Positions 21,753 to 30,718 of a stretch of DNA of 64,000 bases are shown here, one piece after another; position 1 is the first letter of the stretch, and each line of letters opens with the position of its first letter. The DNA is taken from contig NZ_CP090642.1 in the NCBI RefSeq assembly GCF_029633825.1, positions 496,001-560,000 on the forward strand. The letters are read 5' to 3'. The DNA is from Burkholderia contaminans (GTDB lineage Bacteria; Pseudomonadota; Gammaproteobacteria; Burkholderiales; Burkholderiaceae). The notes beneath the pieces are model-generated. The model searched no databases. It had not been told where the DNA came from and saw nothing but the letters and a program-made list of their open reading frames with translations. Made by a program: the position numbers and the translations under genes.

Positions 21753-22931
21753 TCAATGATGGAGCAGCGGGAACGCCACGAGCCCGATGACGGCGGCAGC
21801 CGTCACGATCACCGGTTCCTGGAGCTTCTTGAAACGCCACAGCAGCAGCACGGTGGCGACGGCGAGCAGGGCGGTCGGGATGTCGACGATCGATCGCTTC
21901 GCGATCACGAGGACGGAGCCCGTGATCGCGCCGACGGCTGCGGCGGTGATGCCGTTCACGAACGCCTTGACGCCCGGTCGGTGCCCGTATTTTTTCACGT
22001 AAGGCGCGGGGATGACCGTGAACAGGTAGCAAGGCAGGAACGTGCCGAGCGAAGCGACGAGTGCGCCCGGGAATCCCGCGACCAGATACCCGATGAAGCC
22101 GACGGTGATCACGACCGGGCCGGGCGTGATCATCGCGACCGCGACGGCATCCACGAACTGTTTGTCGTTCAGCCAGTGATGTTCGGTGACGACGCCGCCA
22201 TAGAGGAACGGCACGATCGCAAGCCCGGAGCCGAACACGAACGCACCTGCCTTCATGAAGAACGCACCGATCTGGACGAGCTGCGGTAAATCGATGCCGC
22301 TCAGCCATCCGCTGGCTGCGGGAAGATTGGCGGCGGCAACGGCATTCAGGCCGCCCTTGTGCAGCCACTTGGGTGGCGCGCGCCACAGCCAGCCGATCAG
22401 GCCGGCCGCGACGAACAGCCACGCGATTTCCGATTCCGTGATGAAGGTCACCGCGGCCAGGGTCAGGAAGATCGCCCAAAGGAGCTTGTCGTTGCCGACG
22501 GTCTTGGTCGTGAGCTTGTAGGCGCTCATCGCGATGATGCCGACCACCGCGGCGCCGACGCCGTAGAAGACGGCCTGCATCCACGGCAGCCCGCCGAAAT
22601 GCGCGTACGCGAACCCGAGCGCGACCACCATCAGGAACGACGGCACCACGAACGCGAAACCGACCAGCGTCGCGCCGAGGAGGCGGTAGTGGACGAAGCC
22701 GAGATAGATCGCCAACTGGGCCGCCATCGGCCCCGGGGCGAGCTGGGCCAGCGTGAGGCCTTCCTTGTAGTCGGCCTCGGTGATCCAGCCGCGACGCTCG
22801 ACCAGGTCGCGACGCATGTAGCCCGCGAGCGCGACCGGCCCGCCGAAACCCAAGGTGCCGAGACGCAGCATGTAGGCGACCAGTTCGCCCAGCGAGTAGG
22901 TCGGTTCGGTGGTGGCGATGGTAGTCGTCAT
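21753..22931 (-). CDS. chrA: Chromate efflux transporter ChrA
   Basis: An inner-membrane chromate exporter of 392 residues built of two homologous halves (bidomain CHR type). The first half has LGTLGFGGPVALAGYM at about residues 28-43 and LAQLAPGPMAAQLAIYLG near residues 61-78. The second repeats FVFGSGLAIVPFLYGGVV and AVAMITPGPVVITVGFIG. Its ATG overlaps the chrB stop (ATGA), so the two form an operon. No chrC or chrF gene is adjacent. Confidence 0.93.
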   Translation of the reverse strand: MTTTIATTEPTYSLGELVAYMLRLGTLGFGGPVALAGYMRRDLVERRGWITEADYKEGLTLAQLAPGPMAAQLAIYLGFVHYRLLGATLVGFAFVVPSFLMVVALGFAYAHFGGLPWMQAVFYGVGAAVVGIIAMSAYKLTTKTVGNDKLLWAIFLTLAAVTFITESEIAWLFVAAGLIGWLWRAPPKWLHKGGLNAVAAANLPAASGWLSGIDLPQLVQIGAFFMKAGAFVFGSGLAIVPFLYGGVVTEHHWLNDKQFVDAVAVAMITPGPVVITVGFIGYLVAGFPGALVASLGTFLPCYLFTVIPAPYVKKYGHRPGVKAFVNGITAAAVGAITGSVLVIAKRSIVDIPTALLAVATVLLLWRFKKLQEPVIVTAAAVIGLVAFPLLHH

Positions 22932-23905
22932 GATCTGGCGGTGGTTGGGTTCTTTCCGCTCGACGTGAAGTGCGCATACAGGGCGTCGAGCACGGCGCCC
23001 ATCTGCTCGAGCAACTGATCGTCGTTCTCGGTGCGCTGGCGCGTGCCGGCCATCACGGCCTCGAAGCCCACCGCTTCAGGCGCGGCGGAGCCGCCTACGT
23101 CGAGTGCATGAACGATCTCGCCGAGCCGCATCAGCGCGGCGTCGTTTTCGAGCCCGAAACTGGCGAGTAGCACCTCGAATGTCACGCGCTCGCCGACGTG
23201 CGTGAACGTCGCACCGTCGAAATCGAAGCCGAGCGCGTCGGCCGGGCAATCCGCCGGCGACGCCAGCCAGATGAAGCGGGCGCGCGCGTCGATGAATCGC
23301 TGGATCAACCATGCGCTCGCGACGCGATCGACCCACATCCGCTGCCGCGTCGCCCACGTGCGACCCTGGTACTCGCCAATCGCCAGCGGGCGAATGGCGC
23401 GATCGGCGGCGTGCGGCTCGCCCGGCGACAGCACGGTGTCGACCAGCGCGACGAAATCCTGCAGCGCGGCTTCGGCACGGGTGGCCGAATCGCCCGGGAA
23501 ATAGTCGATCGCCCGGATGGCGTCGAAATCCTTGCGCAGGCGACGCAGCAGGCGGGTGAGTTCCGTGGGGGACTGCCCGGCAAGTGTCTTGCGCGCGTCG
23601 ACGAGCGTGCGCGTGAAGGTCGCGTAGTCGTCGTCGCGGTCGAACAGCGCGCGGAATTCCTGTTCCTGCGACGCGTCGAGACTGGGCGCGCGCAGCAGGT
23701 AGGCCGTGCCCCCGCTGTCGGCGATGGCGTCCGCGAGTTCGCGCAGGGTCGCTTCATGCTCTGCGGTGTGCGGCAGCAGGTAGATGCCGTCGCGCAGCAC
23801 CGCGCAGCCCTTCGATTTGAGCGCACGCCAGAATCGCATGCGGGCCGTCGCGTTTTCTGTTGGAAGGGTCAGTACAAGGAGTGACCAGATCGATGAAGTA
23901 CTCAT
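22928..23905 (-). CDS. chrB: Chromate resistance protein ChrB
   Basis: A cytoplasmic protein of 325 residues and the first gene of the chromate operon. The N-terminal half (about 1-150) has the ChrB pattern SLLVLTLPTENATARMRFWRALKSKG and CAVLRDGIYLLP. The C-terminal half contains RMWVDRVASAWLIQRFID and a CPADALGFDFDGATFTH segment. In characterised systems ChrB represses or tunes chrA in response to chromate. Its start (ATG 23905) lies at the edge of a 6-bp dyad TGTAGA...TCTACA (23905-23940), a possible autoregulatory site. Confidence 0.9.
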   Translation of the reverse strand: MSTSSIWSLLVLTLPTENATARMRFWRALKSKGCAVLRDGIYLLPHTAEHEATLRELADAIADSGGTAYLLRAPSLDASQEQEFRALFDRDDDYATFTRTLVDARKTLAGQSPTELTRLLRRLRKDFDAIRAIDYFPGDSATRAEAALQDFVALVDTVLSPGEPHAADRAIRPLAIGEYQGRTWATRQRMWVDRVASAWLIQRFIDARARFIWLASPADCPADALGFDFDGATFTHVGERVTFEVLLASFGLENDAALMRLGEIVHALDVGGSAAPEAVGFEAVMAGTRQRTENDDQLLEQMGAVLDALYAHFTSSGKNPTTARS

Positions 23906-24348
23906 GTAGAGAATGCTACTAATGAGTTACGACATCTACAAGTCAACTTTTTCGAGCGCTACTGGGCAGGGCGGCTGCACCAGTCGTCAGCCGGCGACAG
24001 GGTGATTCGAATGGTTGGCAGTGCGCTCCCAATACGGCAGCGAACCCGCATGCAACGGGGCGCCTGTTCGGCCGTCTCCGTCGCGCGAGCGAGACGTGGG
24101 GAAGGGGGAAACGTTGGCGTATCGCGGCCGGCGCCACCCGTTCCGGCAGGCGTCTCCCCCTGCGCCAGCCGCCTGCCCATGACGCCCCAAGGGTCGTCAT
24201 GGAAAACTGTATGAATATACAGTATAGTGTCCGTCGAAATCGAGTCGCACGGGTACAACCTTGCGGCCCGTGCGCCGCGCCTGCGGGCATCCGCCGCAGC
24301 GTTCCGGCACCGTGAACTCTGGCTAACTCATTCAGACGGGCAGGCAAA
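23906..24348. other. Divergent promoter region between chrB and the tandem uvrA
   Basis: This 443-bp gap holds the chrB promoter side (dyad TGTAGA/TCTACA near 23905-23940) and the SOS box for the uvrA-like gene. No gene of its own is visible. Confidence 0.6.
24205..24224 (+). promoter_or_regulatory. LexA (SOS) box upstream of the tandem uvrA
   Basis: The core CTGTATGAATATACAG at 24207-24222 fits CTGT-N8-ACAG perfectly and is flanked by AA and TA as in strong LexA sites. A TATAGT that could serve as a -10 element overlaps its right edge at 24223-24228, so bound LexA would block transcription. The start codon lies about 125 bases downstream. No other gene in the window shows such a box. Confidence 0.85.
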
Positions 24349-27300
24349 TTGTCATCCAGCAATCTGATCCGCATTCGCGGAGCGCGTCAGCACAACCTCA
24401 AGAACCTCGATCTCGACCTGCGTACCGGCGAGATGACGGTCGTTACCGGCCCGTCGGGCTCCGGCAAGTCCAGCCTCGTATTCGACACGCTGTACGCGGA
24501 AGGCCAGCGGCGCTACGTCGAAACCTTCAGCGCGTACGCGCGGCAGTTCCTCGACCGGATGGACCGTCCGCAGGTCGAGCGTGTCGACGGCGTGCCGCCG
24601 GCAATCGCGATCGACCAGACCAACCCGGTCCGTAGCTCGCGCTCGACCGTCGGCACGATGACCGAGCTGAACGATCACCTGAAGCTGCTGTACGCGCGCG
24701 CGGCCGAGCTGTTCGATCGCAAGACCGCGCGGCAGGTGCGGCACGACACGCCGGAGACGATCTACGCGGAGCTCGTCGAACGCACGCGAGCCGACGATCC
24801 GCGTGTCGTCGTCACGTTCCCGGTCGAGCTGCCGGAAGCGGTGTCCGATGAGGAAATCGCGCAGTGGCTGTCGGCGAGCGGCTATACGCGCGTGCAGGCG
24901 CAGCGCGAGGTCGCTTCAGCCACCGGGCCGCGCAAGGTGCTCGACGTGGTGGCCGACCGCTTCCGCGTGCAGGGCGCCGACAAGGTGCGCGTGGTCGAGG
25001 CGATCGAGGCGTCGCTGAAACGCGGCGGCGGCCGCGTGAACGTCTATGTGCTGCCGGCCGACGCCGAGAATGCGGTTGCCGAGCCGCTGGTGTGGCGTTT
25101 CTCCACCGGCCTGCACGATCCCGACAGCGACCTGCGCTACGCGGAGCCGCAGGCGGCGCTGTTCTCGTTCAATTCGGCATATGGCGCATGCGAAACCTGC
25201 CGCGGCTTCGGCCGCGTGATCGGCGTCGATCTCGGCCTCGTGATCCCCGACGCGCGCAAGACGCTGCGCGGCGGCGCGATCAAGCCGATGCAGACCCCAG
25301 CCTGGAAGGAGTGCCAGGACGACCTGATGCGCTACGCGGCGAAAGCCGGCATCCCGCGCGACACGCCGTGGTCCGAGCTGTCGGACGCCCAGCGCGACTG
25401 GGTCGTCAACGGGTCGCCCGACTGGAACGGCAAGTGGCAGAGCCAGTGGTACGGCGTGAAACGCTTCTTCGGCTATCTCGAGTCGAAAGCGTACAAGATG
25501 CATATCCGCGTGCTGCTGTCGAAATACCGCAGCTACACGCCGTGCGACGTGTGCGGCGGCGCGCGCCTGAAGACGGAATCGCTGCAATGGCGGCTCGGCT
25601 CGAAAGAGAACGCGGACGCCGTGCTCGCGCCGGCCGGCCGCTTCATGCCCCGCGGCGTCGACTGGAGCCGCGCGCAGCTCGAAGCGTTGCCGGGCCTGAC
25701 CGTGCACGACCTGATGCTGCTGCCGATCGAGCGCATTCGCCGCTTCTTCGATGACATCACGCTGCCGAGCGCGCTGCTCGACGATGCGCTGAAGCTGCTG
25801 CTCGCCGAGGTGCGCACGCGCCTGAAATATCTGTGCGACGTGGGGCTCGGCTACCTGACGCTCGACCGGCAGAGCCGCACGCTGTCGGGCGGCGAGGTGC
25901 AGCGGATCAACCTGACGACGGCGCTCGGCACGTCGCTCACGAAAACCCTGTTCGTGCTCGACGAACCGAGCATCGGGCTGCATCCGCGCGACCTCACGCG
26001 GATCGTCGAGGCGATGCAGCGGCTGCGCGACGCGGGCAATACGCTGGTCGTGGTCGAACACGATCCGTCGGTGATGCTCGCGGCCGACCGGCTGATCGAC
26101 ATGGGCCCCGGCCCGGGCGAGCGCGGCGGCACGATCGTGTATGACGGCACGCCGGGCGACATTCGTTCGGCGCACACGCTCACGGGCGAGTATCTCGGCG
26201 GCCGCAAGCATGTCGCGCATGCGTCGAACTGGGCGCGCCGGGTGGTCGACGCGAACACGCCGCGCATCGTGCTCGAAGGCGCGACCGAGCACAACCTGCG
26301 CGACGTGACGGTCGAGATTCCGCTGCAGCGGCTCGTCTGCGTGACGGGCGTGTCGGGGTCCGGCAAGTCCACGCTGCTGCAGGACGTGCTCTATCCGGCG
26401 ATGGCCCGCCACCACGGCAAGGCGACCGAGTCGCCGGGCGCGTATCGCGGCCTCACGGGCGCCGACCAGGTCGGCGACGTCGTGTTCGTCGACCAGTCGC
26501 CGATCGGCAAGACCACGCGGTCGAACCCGGCGAGCTACGTCGGCGCGTTCGACGAAATCCGCAAGCTGTTCGCGAAGGCGCCGCTCGCGCTGCAACGCGG
26601 CTATGGCGCCGGCACGTTCAGCTTCAATTCGGGCGACGGCCGGTGCCCGACCTGCGGCGGCTCGGGCTTCGAGCACATCGAGATGCAGTTCCTGAGCGAC
26701 GTCTACCTGCGCTGCCCGGATTGCGACGGCAGCCGCTACCGCGCCGAGATTCTCGAGGTGCGCATCGAGCGCGACGGCCGCGCGCTGAGCATCGCCGACG
26801 TGCTCGACCTCACCGTCAGCGAAGCGGCCGCGTTCTTCGCGACCGACGCCGAGGTGCTGCGCGTGCTGCAGCCGATCGTCGACGTCGGCCTCGAATACGT
26901 GAAGCTCGGCCAGCCGGTGCCGACGCTGTCGGGCGGCGAAGCGCAGCGGCTGAAGCTTGCCGGCTTCCTCGCCGAATCGGCGGCAGCCGTCAACGGCCGC
27001 CGGGTCGTCACGGAAGAAGCGCGCATCGCGCGGGCGAAGCTGTTCATGTTCGACGAGCCGACCACCGGGCTGCACTTCGACGACATCGCGAAGCTGATGC
27101 AGGCGTTCGGCAAGCTGCTCGCCGCCGGCCATTCGCTGATCGTGATCGAGCACAACCTCGACGTGATCCGCGCGGCCGACTGGCTGATCGATCTCGGCCC
27201 GGAAGGCGGCGACGGCGGCGGCCTCGTGCTGTGCGCGGGCACACCCGACGACGTGAAGGCTTGCGCCGAATCGCATACCGGCGTGGCGCTGCTGCAGTAC

Positions 27301-30243
27301 GACCGCGCGATGGATGCCGAGCTGGCGCTCGCCGACGAAGGCAAGCCGCTGCAGGCCGTGCTGAACGCGGCGCGCGAGCGGCGTGCGATCGAAGGCGAAG
27401 ACGTCGTGCGGATCGTCAATGCACGTGAGCACAACCTGAAGGCGCTCGACGTCGACATCCCGCACGGCAAGTTCAACGTGATCACCGGCGTGTCCGGTTC
27501 CGGCAAGTCGACGCTCGCGTTCGACATCCTGTTCCATGAAGGGCAGCGCCGTTACCTCGAGTCGCTGAATGCGTATGCGCGCTCGATCGTGCAGCCGGCC
27601 GGCCGCCCTGAAGTCGATGCGGTGTACGGCATTCCGCCGACCGTCGCGATCGAGCAGCGGCTGTCGCGCGGCGGCCGCAAGAGCACGGTCGCGACCACGT
27701 CCGAGGTCTGGCACTTCCTGCGGCTGCTGTACGTGAAGCTCGGCCTGCAGCATTGCATCCACGACGGCACGCCCGTCACGTCGCAGTCCGTCGAATCGAT
27801 CGCCGCGCAGTTGCTGCGCGATCATCGCGGCGAGCACGTCGGGCTGCTTGCGCCGCTCGTCGTCAACCGCAAGGGCGTGTATACGGATCTCGCGAAATGG
27901 GCGAAGGCGCGCGGCAGCACGCATCTGCGCGTCGACGGCGAGTTCGTGCAGGTCGATCCGTGGCCGAAGCTCGACCGCTTCCGCGAGCATACGATCGAGC
28001 TGCCGGTGGCCGACATCGTCGTGTCGCCGGACAACGAGGCCGAACTGCGGCGCGTGCTCGACGAGACGCTCGAGCTCGGCAAGGGCGTGATGCATCTGCT
28101 CGCGCCGCTCGACGGGCTGCACGATGCGATGCAGAACGATCATTCGACCGCGCGCGTCGGCACGGTCAAGGTGCTGTCGGTCAAGCGCGCGTGCCCGGTG
28201 TGCGGCACGAGCTACCCGGAGCTGGACCCGCGGATGTTCTCGTACAACAGCAAGCACGGCTGGTGCACGACCTGCGTCGGCACCGGCGTCACGCTCACAC
28301 GTGAACAGCGCGCCGCGTACGACGACACCGTGCTCGCCGGGGATGACCGTGGCCGTGAGCAGACGCTGCCGTCCGACGAGCAGGAACCGGAAGGCGTGGG
28401 CAACGAGCCGTGCCCGGATTGCAACGGCACGCGGCTGAACCCGTCCGCGCGCGCGGTCACGTTCGACGCGCATCCGATCGTCGAGGTCGCGCAATGGACG
28501 GTGTCCGACACGCGGCGCTGGATCGACGGGCTGGAGCTGACGGGGCGCGACGCGCAGATCGCACGCGACATCGTCAGCGAGATCGGCAGCCGCCTCGCGT
28601 TTCTCGAGGAAGTCGGGCTCGGCTACCTGAGCCTCGATCGTGCGGCGCCGAGCCTGTCGGGTGGCGAAGCACAGCGCATCCGGCTCGCGGCGCAGCTCGG
28701 CAGCAACCTGCAGGGCGTCTGCTACGTGCTCGACGAACCGACGATCGGCCTGCATCCGCGCGACAACCAGATCCTGCTGGACGCGCTGCGCAAGCTCGGC
28801 GACAAGGGCAACACGCTCGTCGTCGTCGAGCATGACGAGGACACGATCCGTCGCGCCGATCACATCATCGACGTCGGCCCGGGCGCCGGCAAGCGCGGCG
28901 GCACGCTGGTCGCGCAGGGGGCGGTCGCGGATCTCGCCGCGCAATCCGATTCGGTCACGGGGCGCCTGCTTGCGCAGCCGATGACGCACCCGCTGCAGCC
29001 GCGCCGCAGCGTGAGCCCGCCGGGCAAGAAAGGCGGCGCCGCGGTGCCGGAGGCCTGGCTGACCGTGCATGGCGCGCGGCTGCACAACCTGCGCGACGTC
29101 ACGGTCGGCATTCCGCTCGCGCGGCTCGTCGCGGTGACGGGCGTGAGCGGTTCGGGCAAGTCGACGCTCGCGCGCGACGTGCTGATGACGAACCTGCTCG
29201 ACGCGGTCGGCCGCTCGGTGCTGTCGTCGCCGGCCACGCGCCGCGCACGCAAGGCCGCGCAGCAGGACGCGCCGGCCACCAATCGCCGGTCGAGCGTGCT
29301 CGCGCGCAGCGCGCCGCGGCCGTCGCTGAACGTCACGCATGCGTGGCAGGGCTGCGAGTCGCTGAGCGGCTGGGAGCAGATCGATCGCGTGCTGGAAGTC
29401 GACCAGACGCCGATCGGCAAGACGCCGCGCTCGTGCCCGGCCACCTATATCGGCGTGTGGGACACGATCCGCAAGCTGTTCGCCGATACGCTCGAAGCGC
29501 GGGCGCGCGGCTACACGGCATCGCGCTTCTCGTTCAATACCGGCGACGGGCGCTGCCCCGCATGCGAAGGGCAAGGCGTGCGCACGATCGGGATGAGCTT
29601 CCTGCCCGACGTGAAGGTGCCGTGCGACGTGTGCCACGGGCAGCGCTTCAACCCGGAGACGCTCGCCGTCACGTGGCGCGGCCGGAACATCGGCGACGTG
29701 CTGACGATGGAGATCGACGAGGCGGTGGAGTTTTTCGCGCCGATCTCGAACATCGCGCATCCGCTGCAGCTGATGAAGGATGTCGGGCTCGGCTACCTGA
29801 CGCTCGGCCAGCCGTCGCCGACGCTGTCGGGCGGCGAGGCGCAGCGCATCAAGCTCGTCACCGAGCTGACGAAGGTGCGCGACGACATCACGCGGCGCGG
29901 CCAGAAGGCGCCGCACACGCTGTACGTGCTCGACGAACCGACGGTCGGCCTGCACATGGCCGACGTCGCGAAGCTGATCCGCGTGCTGCACCGGCTCGTC
30001 GATGCGGGCCACAGCGTCGTCGTGATCGAGCATGACCTCGACGTGATCGCCGAAGCCGACTGGATCATCGATCTCGGGCCGGAGGGCGGCGTGGGCGGCG
30101 GCACGATCGTCGCGGCGGCACCGCCGGAAGCGCTCGTCCAGGTGAGTGCAAGCCACACCGGGCAGGCGCTCAAGCCGGTGCTGGCGCGAACCGGGTCGGA
30201 CGAAGGGGAAGCCGAGCGCGAGGGCGAAGCGCGGGTAGGGTGA
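24349..30243 (+). CDS. Double-length UvrA (tandem fusion of two UvrA units)
   Basis: A 1964-residue protein, about twice the usual 940 of UvrA. Both halves (about 1-1005 and 1025-1964) have the full UvrA order of two ABC cassettes each. Walker A lysines lie at K40, K673, K1053 and K1604. Four LSGGE signatures (LSGGEVQR, then LSGGEAQR three times) and four intact Walker B DEP motifs are present. The second half has the complete first zinc site (CPVCG...CTTC); the first half keeps only the second pair (CETC), its first CxxC being absent. The 3' zinc sites are complete in both. The start is TTG, with a weak GGCAGG ribosome site. The function is inferred as damage recognition in nucleotide excision repair under SOS control, acting beside a separate housekeeping UvrA. 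Confidence 0.93.
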
Positions 30244-30277
30244 GCGCGACGCTTCGTCTCGACGGCCCCGGTGCCGG

Positions 30278-30322
30278 GCGGTGCGCCCCCAGCTGACTTG
30301 CAAGCGGCTGGGGGCGCACCGC
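30278..30322 (+). repeat. Long inverted repeat, 16-bp perfect arms
   Basis: Left arm 30278-30293 and right arm 30307-30322 are exact reverse complements (core GGTGCGCCCCCAGC / GCTGGGGGCGCACC) around a 13-base loop, which itself contains CTTGCAAG. It lies 35 bases after the uvrA stop. It has no T-run of its own and sits just before the terminator. Confidence 0.85.
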
Positions 30323-30335
30323 GATCCGGCTCATG

Positions 30336-30363
30336 CACCCCTCGTCGAGGGGTGTTTTCTTTT
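30336..30363 (+). terminator. Rho-independent terminator of the tandem uvrA
   Basis: CACCCCTC and GAGGGGTG (8-bp arms, 3-base loop) are followed at once by TTTTCTTTT. This is a textbook intrinsic terminator on the plus strand. Confidence 0.88.
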
Positions 30364-30718
30364 GGGGCTGCGGTCGACGCCCTATGCCGCCGCCGTGATC
30401 GCGTGGTGCACCCGCCGCCACAGGCCGGCAGTCCGATCGGCATGAACGCAAGCTGCCAGGTCTCGAACCCGGCGAGCACCGGGAATGGCTGATGGACATC
30501 GCATGCGAACAAGATGACGAGGCTGCCGCCATCGCGGCGGCCGCGACACGCGCCCGACCGATCGGGTGCGTCCATTGTCCATTGTTAATGCGGCTCGAAT
30601 AGAGAGTTGGAATCAGGGGGATAAGAGAAAGCGCGCCCGATGGTTAGGATGAATGTCGTTGTCCGGCGGACGATCTTCGGATCGTCCCATCATTCTCGAA
30701 CGCATCAGGAGTGCAATC

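What the first reader, a model, noticed from the sequence alone, without database searches (positions are those of the whole stretch)
24349..30243. Double-length UvrA with four ABC cassettes and an asymmetric zinc site
The protein holds two UvrA copies in one chain (Walker A lysines near 40, 673, 1053 and 1604; four LSGGE and four DEP motifs). All nucleotide sites look intact, so neither half is obviously dead. The first half lacks the first CxxC of its first zinc site while the second half has all of it. Fusing a normal UvrA dimer into one chain could lock a fixed partner or create a specialised damage sensor.
Basis: partly seen in the sequence, partly recalled or inferred. Interest (0 to 1): 0.72.

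Follow-up and report, generated by a model that had tools for sequence, protein, structure and literature searches.

The report
Fused, lopsided UvrA DNA-damage sensor
A Burkholderia gene makes two UvrA DNA-damage sensors as one chain whose halves have become unequal: only the front half keeps the residues for docking the repair partner UvrB and a full damage-probing domain, and the gene carries a likely SOS-response switch.

Summary
One open frame (24349-30243, TTG start, 1964 aa) contains two UvrA modules with four intact ATPase sites. It is no misassembly: orthologues occur in 21 of 24 congeners, homologues in 96 of 300 sampled Burkholderiales genomes. Each of the 28 genomes with the double gene also has a single-length UvrA, so this is an accessory paralogue.

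The zinc asymmetry is real but secondary: a stepwise loss in this branch; 8 of 23 ordinary UvrA1 proteins lack three of the same four ligands.

A deeper asymmetry was not noticed. Half 1 keeps the insertion domain and UvrB-docking residues (equivalents of E. coli D205/R206/R216/E222 all present in 66 of 68). Half 2 never has that set (0 of 68) and has lost most of the insertion domain, but keeps K159/G160/H198 (68 of 68; half 1, 0 of 68) and DNA-binding R730. A perfect LexA box lies upstream in 22 of 22 genus members. Half 1 groups with a second UvrA of Bacteroidota (100/99), which coexists with a partner showing partly reversed losses.

Best reading: an SOS-induced fused UvrA pseudo-heterodimer with one UvrB-loading arm. 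Double-length UvrA is known; I found no description of this asymmetry in the open-access library searched. No biochemistry was done.

The parts
24207..24222 (+). LexA/SOS box CTGT-N8-ACAG
   Evidence: Only perfect match in the 64-kb window (0.33 expected). Within 350 nt upstream in 22 of 22 genus members and 6 of 46 other homologues, against 0 matches in about 339 kb of gene bodies; also within 400 nt in 30 of 79 named loci.
24200..24228 (+). sigma-70-like promoter overlapping the LexA box (tested in the window only)
   Evidence: Sole promoter-like hit in 23900-30700, 9 of 12 matches, 0.5 expected.
24349..30243 (+). double-length uvrA open frame, 1964 aa, TTG start
   Evidence: NCBIfam NF001503 1923 bits against a cut-off of 1147.
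24349..27318 (+). half 1 (residues 1-990): UvrA module with insertion domain and UvrB-docking residues
   Evidence: AlphaFold model mean pLDDT 85.6, best PDB match 3uwx_A (UvrA-UvrB complex).
24703..25116 (+). UvrB-binding domain of half 1 (residues 119-256); zinc module 1 lost; docking residues R181, D203, R204, R214, E220 kept
25201..25542 (+). insertion (damage-probing) domain of half 1, residues 285-398
   Evidence: Pfam UvrA_DNA-bind PF17755 at 294-359; 111-119 aa in 68 homologues.
27301..27402 (+). linker between halves, about residues 985-1018
   Evidence: 22-109 aa in 68 homologues, 34 the commonest (24 of 68).
27364..30240 (+). half 2 (residues 1006-1964): UvrA module, all ATPase motifs, insertion domain reduced
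   Evidence: AlphaFold model mean pLDDT 81.7; the first 39 PDB matches are UvrA-family chains.
27754..28203 (+). UvrB-binding domain of half 2 (residues 1136-1285): zinc module 1 cysteines and K1175/G1176/H1214 kept, docking residues replaced (H1192, A1221, D1222, E1232, D1238)
   Evidence: Pfam UvrA_inter best stretch 1146-1250.
28276..28410 (+). remnant of the insertion domain in half 2 (45 aa; 28-60 aa in 68 homologues)
   Evidence: TIGR00630 hits skip model positions 295-396.
24448..24471 (+). Walker A 1 (K40)
26347..26370 (+). Walker A 2 (K673)
27487..27510 (+). Walker A 3 (K1053)
29140..29163 (+). Walker A 4 (K1604)
30335..30355 (+). intrinsic-terminator-like stem-loop
   Evidence: fewer hits than in shuffles (1 against 3.0), so weak evidence.

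Best explanation
The gene encodes an accessory UvrA made under the SOS response, alongside a housekeeping UvrA1. The two halves of one chain probably fold onto each other as a permanent UvrA pseudo-dimer with four working ATPase sites. Half 1 is the sensing and loading arm: it carries the only full insertion domain and the only intact UvrB/Mfd-docking surface, so it should hand the lesion to one UvrB from one side. Half 2 is the partner arm: it supplies two ATPase sites, the canonical DNA-binding residue R730 and a differently conserved UvrB-binding-domain face, but neither the docking residues nor a full insertion domain. It would share the cell's UvrB and UvrC with UvrA1. Shown: architecture, motif retention, LexA box, separate uvrA, one over-cut-off uvrB and uvrC. 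Inferred: intramolecular pairing, one-UvrB stoichiometry, SOS induction itself, repair function.
For: Four ATPase motif sets nearly invariant in 68 homologues. D205/R206/R216/E222 equivalents all present in 66 of 68 half-1 and 0 of 68 half-2 sequences; K159/G160/H198 in 0 of 68 and 68 of 68; R730 in 68 of 68 half-2 while half 1 is mostly T (51 of 68). In single UvrA1s both sets are normal: DRRE in 21 of 23, KGH in 22 of 23. R216/E222 are named as the UvrB interaction surface, and the insertion domain as involved in damage recognition, in PMC3025350 (passages). Insertion domain 111-119 aa in half 1, 28-60 aa in half 2. Separate uvrA1; one over-cut-off uvrB and uvrC each. LexA box in 22 of 22 genus members, overlapping the promoter-like site here; the same motif lies upstream of recA and an imuA-like gene in this genome (recognised by eye), while uvrA1 has none within 500 nt at up to 2 mismatches. 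Half 1 groups with the Bacteroidota second UvrA, 100/99. Those type-a genes keep the docking set (4 of 4), and the type-b genes of three Bacteroidales have lost part of it. In P. gingivalis, which has two uvrA paralogues, deleting one gives UV sensitivity although the other is intact (PMC3747172, passages).
Against: No biochemistry or expression data. E. coli R216A/E222A still supports NER and TCR in the assay of PMC3025350, so half 2 may still bind UvrB; one of 68 half-2 sequences (L118) has Arg at the R216 position. Half 2's UvrB-binding domain is strongly conserved in its own way, so it is not simply dead. The complementarity as such is not beyond chance: of 29 positions conserved in 23 UvrA1s, half 1 keeps 10 and half 2 keeps 13, sharing 3 against 4.5 expected (P 0.22). 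Pairing within one chain, rather than between chains, is untested. The LexA box is absent from most homologues outside the genus (40 of 46; 49 of 79 named loci). Bacteroidota type b has lost the docking set only in part (YDKRA, NDKRK; Bernardetia KDRRK) and keeps its insertion domain.
Confidence: 0.5

Rival explanations
1. A plain fused UvrA dimer: both halves still dock UvrB, and the sequence differences are drift after fusion; it simply raises UvrA activity during SOS.
For: All ATPase motifs and Zn2/Zn3 cysteines are kept in both halves. Half 2 keeps a UvrB-binding domain with the zinc module 1 cysteines. E. coli R216A/E222A is not a null (PMC3025350).
Against: The docking set is absent in 68 of 68 half 2s while being kept in 66 of 68 half 1s, and the insertion domain is reduced in 68 of 68 half 2s. 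Drift would not spare one half so consistently.
Confidence: 0.17
2. A UvrB-independent DNA-protection ATPase, like class II UvrA2 or Ecm16, that displaces bound drugs or adducts.
For: An accessory paralogue with intact ATPases and one full insertion domain; Ecm16 gives resistance also without UvrB (PMC10192343, passages).
Against: Class II proteins lack the UvrB-binding domain and zinc module 1; here both halves keep the domain, and docking residues are kept in 66 of 68 half 1s. No antibiotic-making gene was recognised among the seven neighbours scanned, and of six neighbours tested none recurs in more than 5 of 80 named loci.
Confidence: 0.15
3. A transcription-coupled variant: half 1's docking face mainly recruits Mfd, and the single insertion domain lowers the need for damage discrimination.
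For: In E. coli, deletion of the insertion domain harms global repair more than transcription-coupled repair, and the UvrB-binding domain is called likely also the Mfd site (PMC3025350, passages).
Against: Half 1 keeps a full insertion domain; nothing here separates Mfd from UvrB docking.
Confidence: 0.08

Closest known systems
Canonical UvrA1 (class I; NF001503/TIGR00630)
   Same: Fold, ATPase motifs, Zn2, Zn3, UvrB-binding domain; over the NCBI cut-off; best PDB match of both halves is the UvrA-UvrB complex 3uwx.
   Different: Two modules in one chain; docking residues and full insertion domain in one half only; accessory; LexA box in the Burkholderia branch.
Chlamydial double-length UvrA (NF001885, PRK00635, 1809 aa)
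   Same: Model length 1809, i.e. two UvrA lengths. That the model is chlamydial, and that this is the only UvrA of Chlamydia, is recalled and comes from no call.
   Different: Scores 1079 against a cut-off of 3054; seven of nine pieces match it, all best in the first half of that model, so a common origin of the fusion is not shown.
'Dimeric uvrA' / 'uvrA2' of Alcaligenes and Cupriavidus metallidurans (Rmet_4549)
   Same: C. metallidurans CH34 carries this same double protein (82% identical; 1982-codon frame) and its genome paper names a second uvrA, uvrA2, on CHR2 (PMC2864759, passages); 'dimeric uvrA' is listed in PMC7643998 (passages).
   Different: Only gene names; no mechanism or asymmetry in the passages seen. 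That Rmet_4549 is the matched locus is inferred, because the PLSDB record carries no gene table.
Class II UvrA2 (Deinococcus) and Ecm16
   Same: Accessory UvrA paralogues.
   Different: Lack the UvrB-binding domain and zinc module 1 (passages); both halves here keep the domain.
Bacteroidota paired UvrAs (types a and b, names given here)
   Same: Type a groups with half 1 (100/99) and shares the kept docking set and the loss of zinc 1, K159/G160/H198 and R730; type b keeps KGH and R730 with a partly lost docking set.
   Different: Separate genes; type b keeps a full insertion domain; half 2 is not shown to be type b (AU p 0.685 and 0.062 for holding them together).

Membership tests
UvrA (NCBIfam equivalog NF001503) | Whole-protein score over curated cut-off | tested here: met
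   1923 bits against 1147.
UvrA (NCBIfam equivalog NF001503) | Two ABC ATPase sites per UvrA module, intact | tested here: met
   Four Walker A, four LSGGE, four DEP; nearly invariant in 68.
Class I UvrA (UvrA1) | UvrB-binding domain with docking surface | tested here: inconclusive
   Domain in both halves (Pfam UvrA_inter, 2 stretches); docking set kept in half 1 (66 of 68) and in no half 2.
Class I UvrA (UvrA1) | Insertion domain in each UvrA module | tested here: not met
   Reduced to 28-60 aa in half 2 of all 68.
Class I UvrA (UvrA1) | Loads UvrB at lesions | not testable with these tools
   Needs biochemistry.
Class II UvrA (UvrA2/Ecm16) | Absence of UvrB-binding domain and zinc module 1 | tested here: not met
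   Domain present twice; C120, C253 and C256 kept in half 2, 68 of 68.
Chlamydial double UvrA (NF001885) | Score over curated cut-off | tested here: not met
   1079 against 3054.
LexA/SOS regulon gene | LexA box near the promoter, conserved | tested here: met
   Box in 22 of 22 genus members; promoter overlap tested in the window only; not conserved in most homologues outside the genus.
LexA/SOS regulon gene | Induction by DNA damage, lost in a non-cleavable lexA mutant | not tested
   No expression data used.

The most novel reading that the evidence does not exclude
UvrA can be a heterodimer. Burkholderiales carry it as one fused chain and Bacteroidales as two genes (types a and b). One protomer docks UvrB; the other is a non-docking partner that provides DNA contact and ATPase sites. 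The docking loss in the partner would have occurred in parallel in the two groups, which would mean that productive UvrA needs only one UvrB-loading protomer per dimer, i.e. UvrA2B1 is sufficient for repair.
Probability: 0.33. Interest if true: 0.75.

Novelty: new variant of a known kind. Interest (0 to 1): 0.57.

Why it matters
[quoted passage not shown] listed). In canonical UvrA the two protomers are identical, so one cannot be mutated alone. This natural single-chain protein with a docking half and a half without the docking residues would make that question, and the need for one or two insertion domains, directly testable. It also points to an SOS-controlled second excision-repair sensor in Burkholderiaceae, and offers an explanation for why Bacteroidales keep two UvrA genes.

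Tried and rejected
My first guess, noted, was that half 2 is the UvrB-binding half because it keeps zinc module 1 and half 1 does not. Residue mapping showed the opposite for the experimental docking residues, so it was dropped.

A recent origin of half 1 from the order's own uvrA1 was rejected (AU p 6e-14) and is disfavoured for half 2 (p 0.016). Half 1 and half 2 as sister groups is not rejected (p 0.42; 0.128). Half 2 with Bacteroidota type b is unresolved: a likelihood 11.8 higher than the free tree in one set (p 0.685) and 8.5 lower in another (p 0.062). The quick tree put half 2 beside class II UvrA, perhaps by long branches; those rows were left out.

Rows dropped before counts: L235, L237 and L258-L264 were never made into tree rows; L256 (wrong trim) and L265 were dropped from all trees and residue counts. 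One search used 19 of 25 doubles. L231 was first counted among 24 UvrA1 rows and proved to be Bacteroidota type a; one search recounts with the other 23. One search left out ten UvrA1 rows and kept 14 of 25 doubles; one search also left out four class II rows, five more doubles and two UvrA1 rows. Residue counts use 25 of the 68 doubles; searches use all 68 (68 distinct proteins).

Short copies were checked as possible unfused ancestors: of 10 matches with open frames under 1700 codons I fetched 6. Five run off a contig end (L259-L263) and one (L258) is two overlapping frames; none is a natural two-gene form. The other 4 were not checked.

Conserved neighbours: ChrA, ChrB and the DUF1330 gene occur in 0 of 80 named loci, CoA-transferase in 5, HiPIP in 2, lyase in 1; no partner gene found.

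The chlamydial sequence itself was not obtained, so its halves were not tested for the same asymmetry. Whether Bacteroidota genomes hold a third, canonical UvrA was not tested; only the plasmid collection was searched for them. Which P. gingivalis paralogue is type a or b was not tested.
Full report
WHAT IS THERE. The frame 24349-30243 (+) encodes 1964 aa from a TTG start. It scores 1923 bits against the UvrA equivalog (cut-off 1147). Walker A lysines lie at 40, 673, 1053 and 1604, with four LSGGE and four DEP motifs, exactly as reported. The window lies in G000 contig C3, and a separate canonical uvrA lies at C1:612989-615790 (1463 bits). Over the cut-off there is one uvrB and one uvrC, with weak sub-cut-off matches besides (best 50 and 35 bits).

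NOT AN ASSEMBLY ERROR, AND WIDESPREAD. Of 24 other genomes of the genus, 21 hold an orthologue over nearly the whole length at 92-99% identity, as do 6 of 16 other genomes of the order in that sample at 59-65%; all 28 with the double gene (own genome included) also show a single-length UvrA. A 203-aa piece of half 1 separates the doubles (109 bits or more) from UvrA1 (under 62 bits among those listed). With it, 3 of 150 genomes of the phylum sample (own genome included), all Burkholderiales, score as doubles, and 96 of 300 in the order sample (50 of 134 genera) match at 1e-30 (10 of these matches sit in open frames under 1700 codons). I extracted 68 full-length proteins. Large replicons of Burkholderia, Cupriavidus, Mycetohabitans and Caballeronia carry it. 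Phyla other than Pseudomonadota were not sampled for whole genomes. PMC518961 (passages) tabulates two uvrA genes in Ralstonia solanacearum.

THE ZINC ASYMMETRY. In half 1 all four zinc-module-1 positions are non-ligand (D/T/D/S), while half 2 keeps C120, C253 and C256 in 68 of 68. Across 68 homologues half 1 has four Cys in 35, one in 7 and none in 26, so the loss looks stepwise. In 8 of 23 ordinary UvrA1 sequences C120, H123 and C256 read S, T and S, with C253 kept. Loss of this site is therefore tolerated and not what makes this protein special.

THE LARGER ASYMMETRY. The insertion domain is 111-119 aa in half 1 and 28-60 aa in half 2 of all 68. In E. coli its deletion lowers the discrimination of damaged from undamaged DNA (PMC3025350, passages). 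The same paper names R216 and E222 as the UvrB interaction surface. Equivalents of D205, R206, R216 and E222 are all present in 66 of 68 half-1 sequences (the other two differ only at E222) and in 0 of 68 half-2 sequences; conversely K159, G160 and H198 are in 0 of 68 and 68 of 68. Single UvrA1s have both: DRRE in 21 of 23 and KGH in 22 of 23. R730, one of four residues of an E. coli DNA-binding mutant, is kept in 68 of 68 half-2 sequences and is T in 51 of 68 half-1 sequences. Caution: over all 29 UvrA1-conserved positions of the domain, half 1 keeps 10 and half 2 keeps 13 with 3 shared, against 4.5 expected by chance (P 0.22); the argument rests on which residues were lost, not on complementarity as such. 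AlphaFold models of the halves (mean pLDDT 85.6 and 81.7) have UvrA-family chains as their first 39 PDB matches each.

REGULATION. A perfect CTGT-N8-ACAG box lies at 24207-24222, inside the only promoter-like site of 23900-30700. It recurs upstream of the gene in 22 of 22 genus members and 6 of 46 other loci, against 0 in about 339 kb of gene bodies, and in 30 of 79 scored named loci, in Burkholderia, Paraburkholderia, Caballeronia, Pandoraea and some Cupriavidus. The same motif lies 77 nt upstream of recA and 103 nt upstream of an imuA-like gene in this genome (both recognised by eye). The genome has 61 such sites against 40 for the reversed control, so single sites elsewhere mean little. The housekeeping uvrA has none within 500 nt at up to two mismatches. 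PMC3323433 (passages) places 'uvrA' in the beta-proteobacterial SOS core; the passages do not say which copy.

ORIGIN. Halves 1 and 2 each form one clade, and half 1 joins the second UvrA of Bacteroidota (type a) at 100/99 with the domain and trait columns removed (97). Type a keeps the docking set and has lost zinc 1, KGH and R730, like half 1. Its co-resident type b in B. finegoldii, Phocaeicola massiliensis and Parabacteroides distasonis keeps KGH and R730 and has lost part of the docking set. A sister relation of the two halves is not rejected, and whether half 2 derives from type b is unresolved. P. gingivalis has two uvrA paralogues, and deleting one makes cells UV sensitive although the other remains (PMC3747172, passages). 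This fits a mandatory pair, but it also fits two non-redundant homodimers; which type was deleted was not checked.

HOW IT LIKELY WORKS. Inferred: the chain folds into its own pseudo-dimer, half 1 probes DNA and docks one UvrB (or Mfd), half 2 clamps DNA and cycles ATP, and the complex is made under SOS to support UvrA1. Confidence 0.5.

NOVELTY. Double-length UvrA is already in databases (NF001885; 'dimeric uvrA' in PMC7643998; uvrA2 of C. metallidurans in PMC2864759). Nine searches of the open-access library listed no paper whose title or abstract start describes this asymmetry or the Bacteroidota parallel; subscription papers are mostly not held. Hence: new variant of a known kind.

Noticed in passing
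L266, L267, L268, L269, L231, L275, L270: Bacteroidota carry two UvrA types with different retention of UvrB-docking residues; possibly a two-gene UvrA heterodimer.
   Followed up: partly
L266:1-250 and window 21753-22931: A chromate transporter gene lies near uvrA type a in Bacteroides finegoldii, and a chrB-chrA pair lies divergently next to the double uvrA here; ChrA and ChrB are absent from all 80 named Burkholderiales loci (up to 7 kb flanks), so probably coincidence.
   Followed up: partly
L234:535-4359: Klebsiella grimontii plasmid pNY3A carries a divergent, N-terminally extended UvrA (CDS of 3825 bases as annotated).
   Followed up: no
L256 (G011:C2:2195210-2196688): One congener also encodes a third UvrA-like protein (787-codon frame), probably class II-like.
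   Followed up: no
L265 (G141:C33): A UvrA lies at the C-terminal end of a 1738-codon open frame; the N-terminal part was not examined.
   Followed up: no
G001, G006, G014: Three of 24 congeners lack a match to the double gene; G001 and G006 are the two smallest genomes of that genus sample.
   Followed up: no
window 24916-30303 (-): A 1795-aa open frame runs antisense through the double uvrA; probably a mechanical effect of high G+C codon usage, no evidence of a gene.
   Followed up: no
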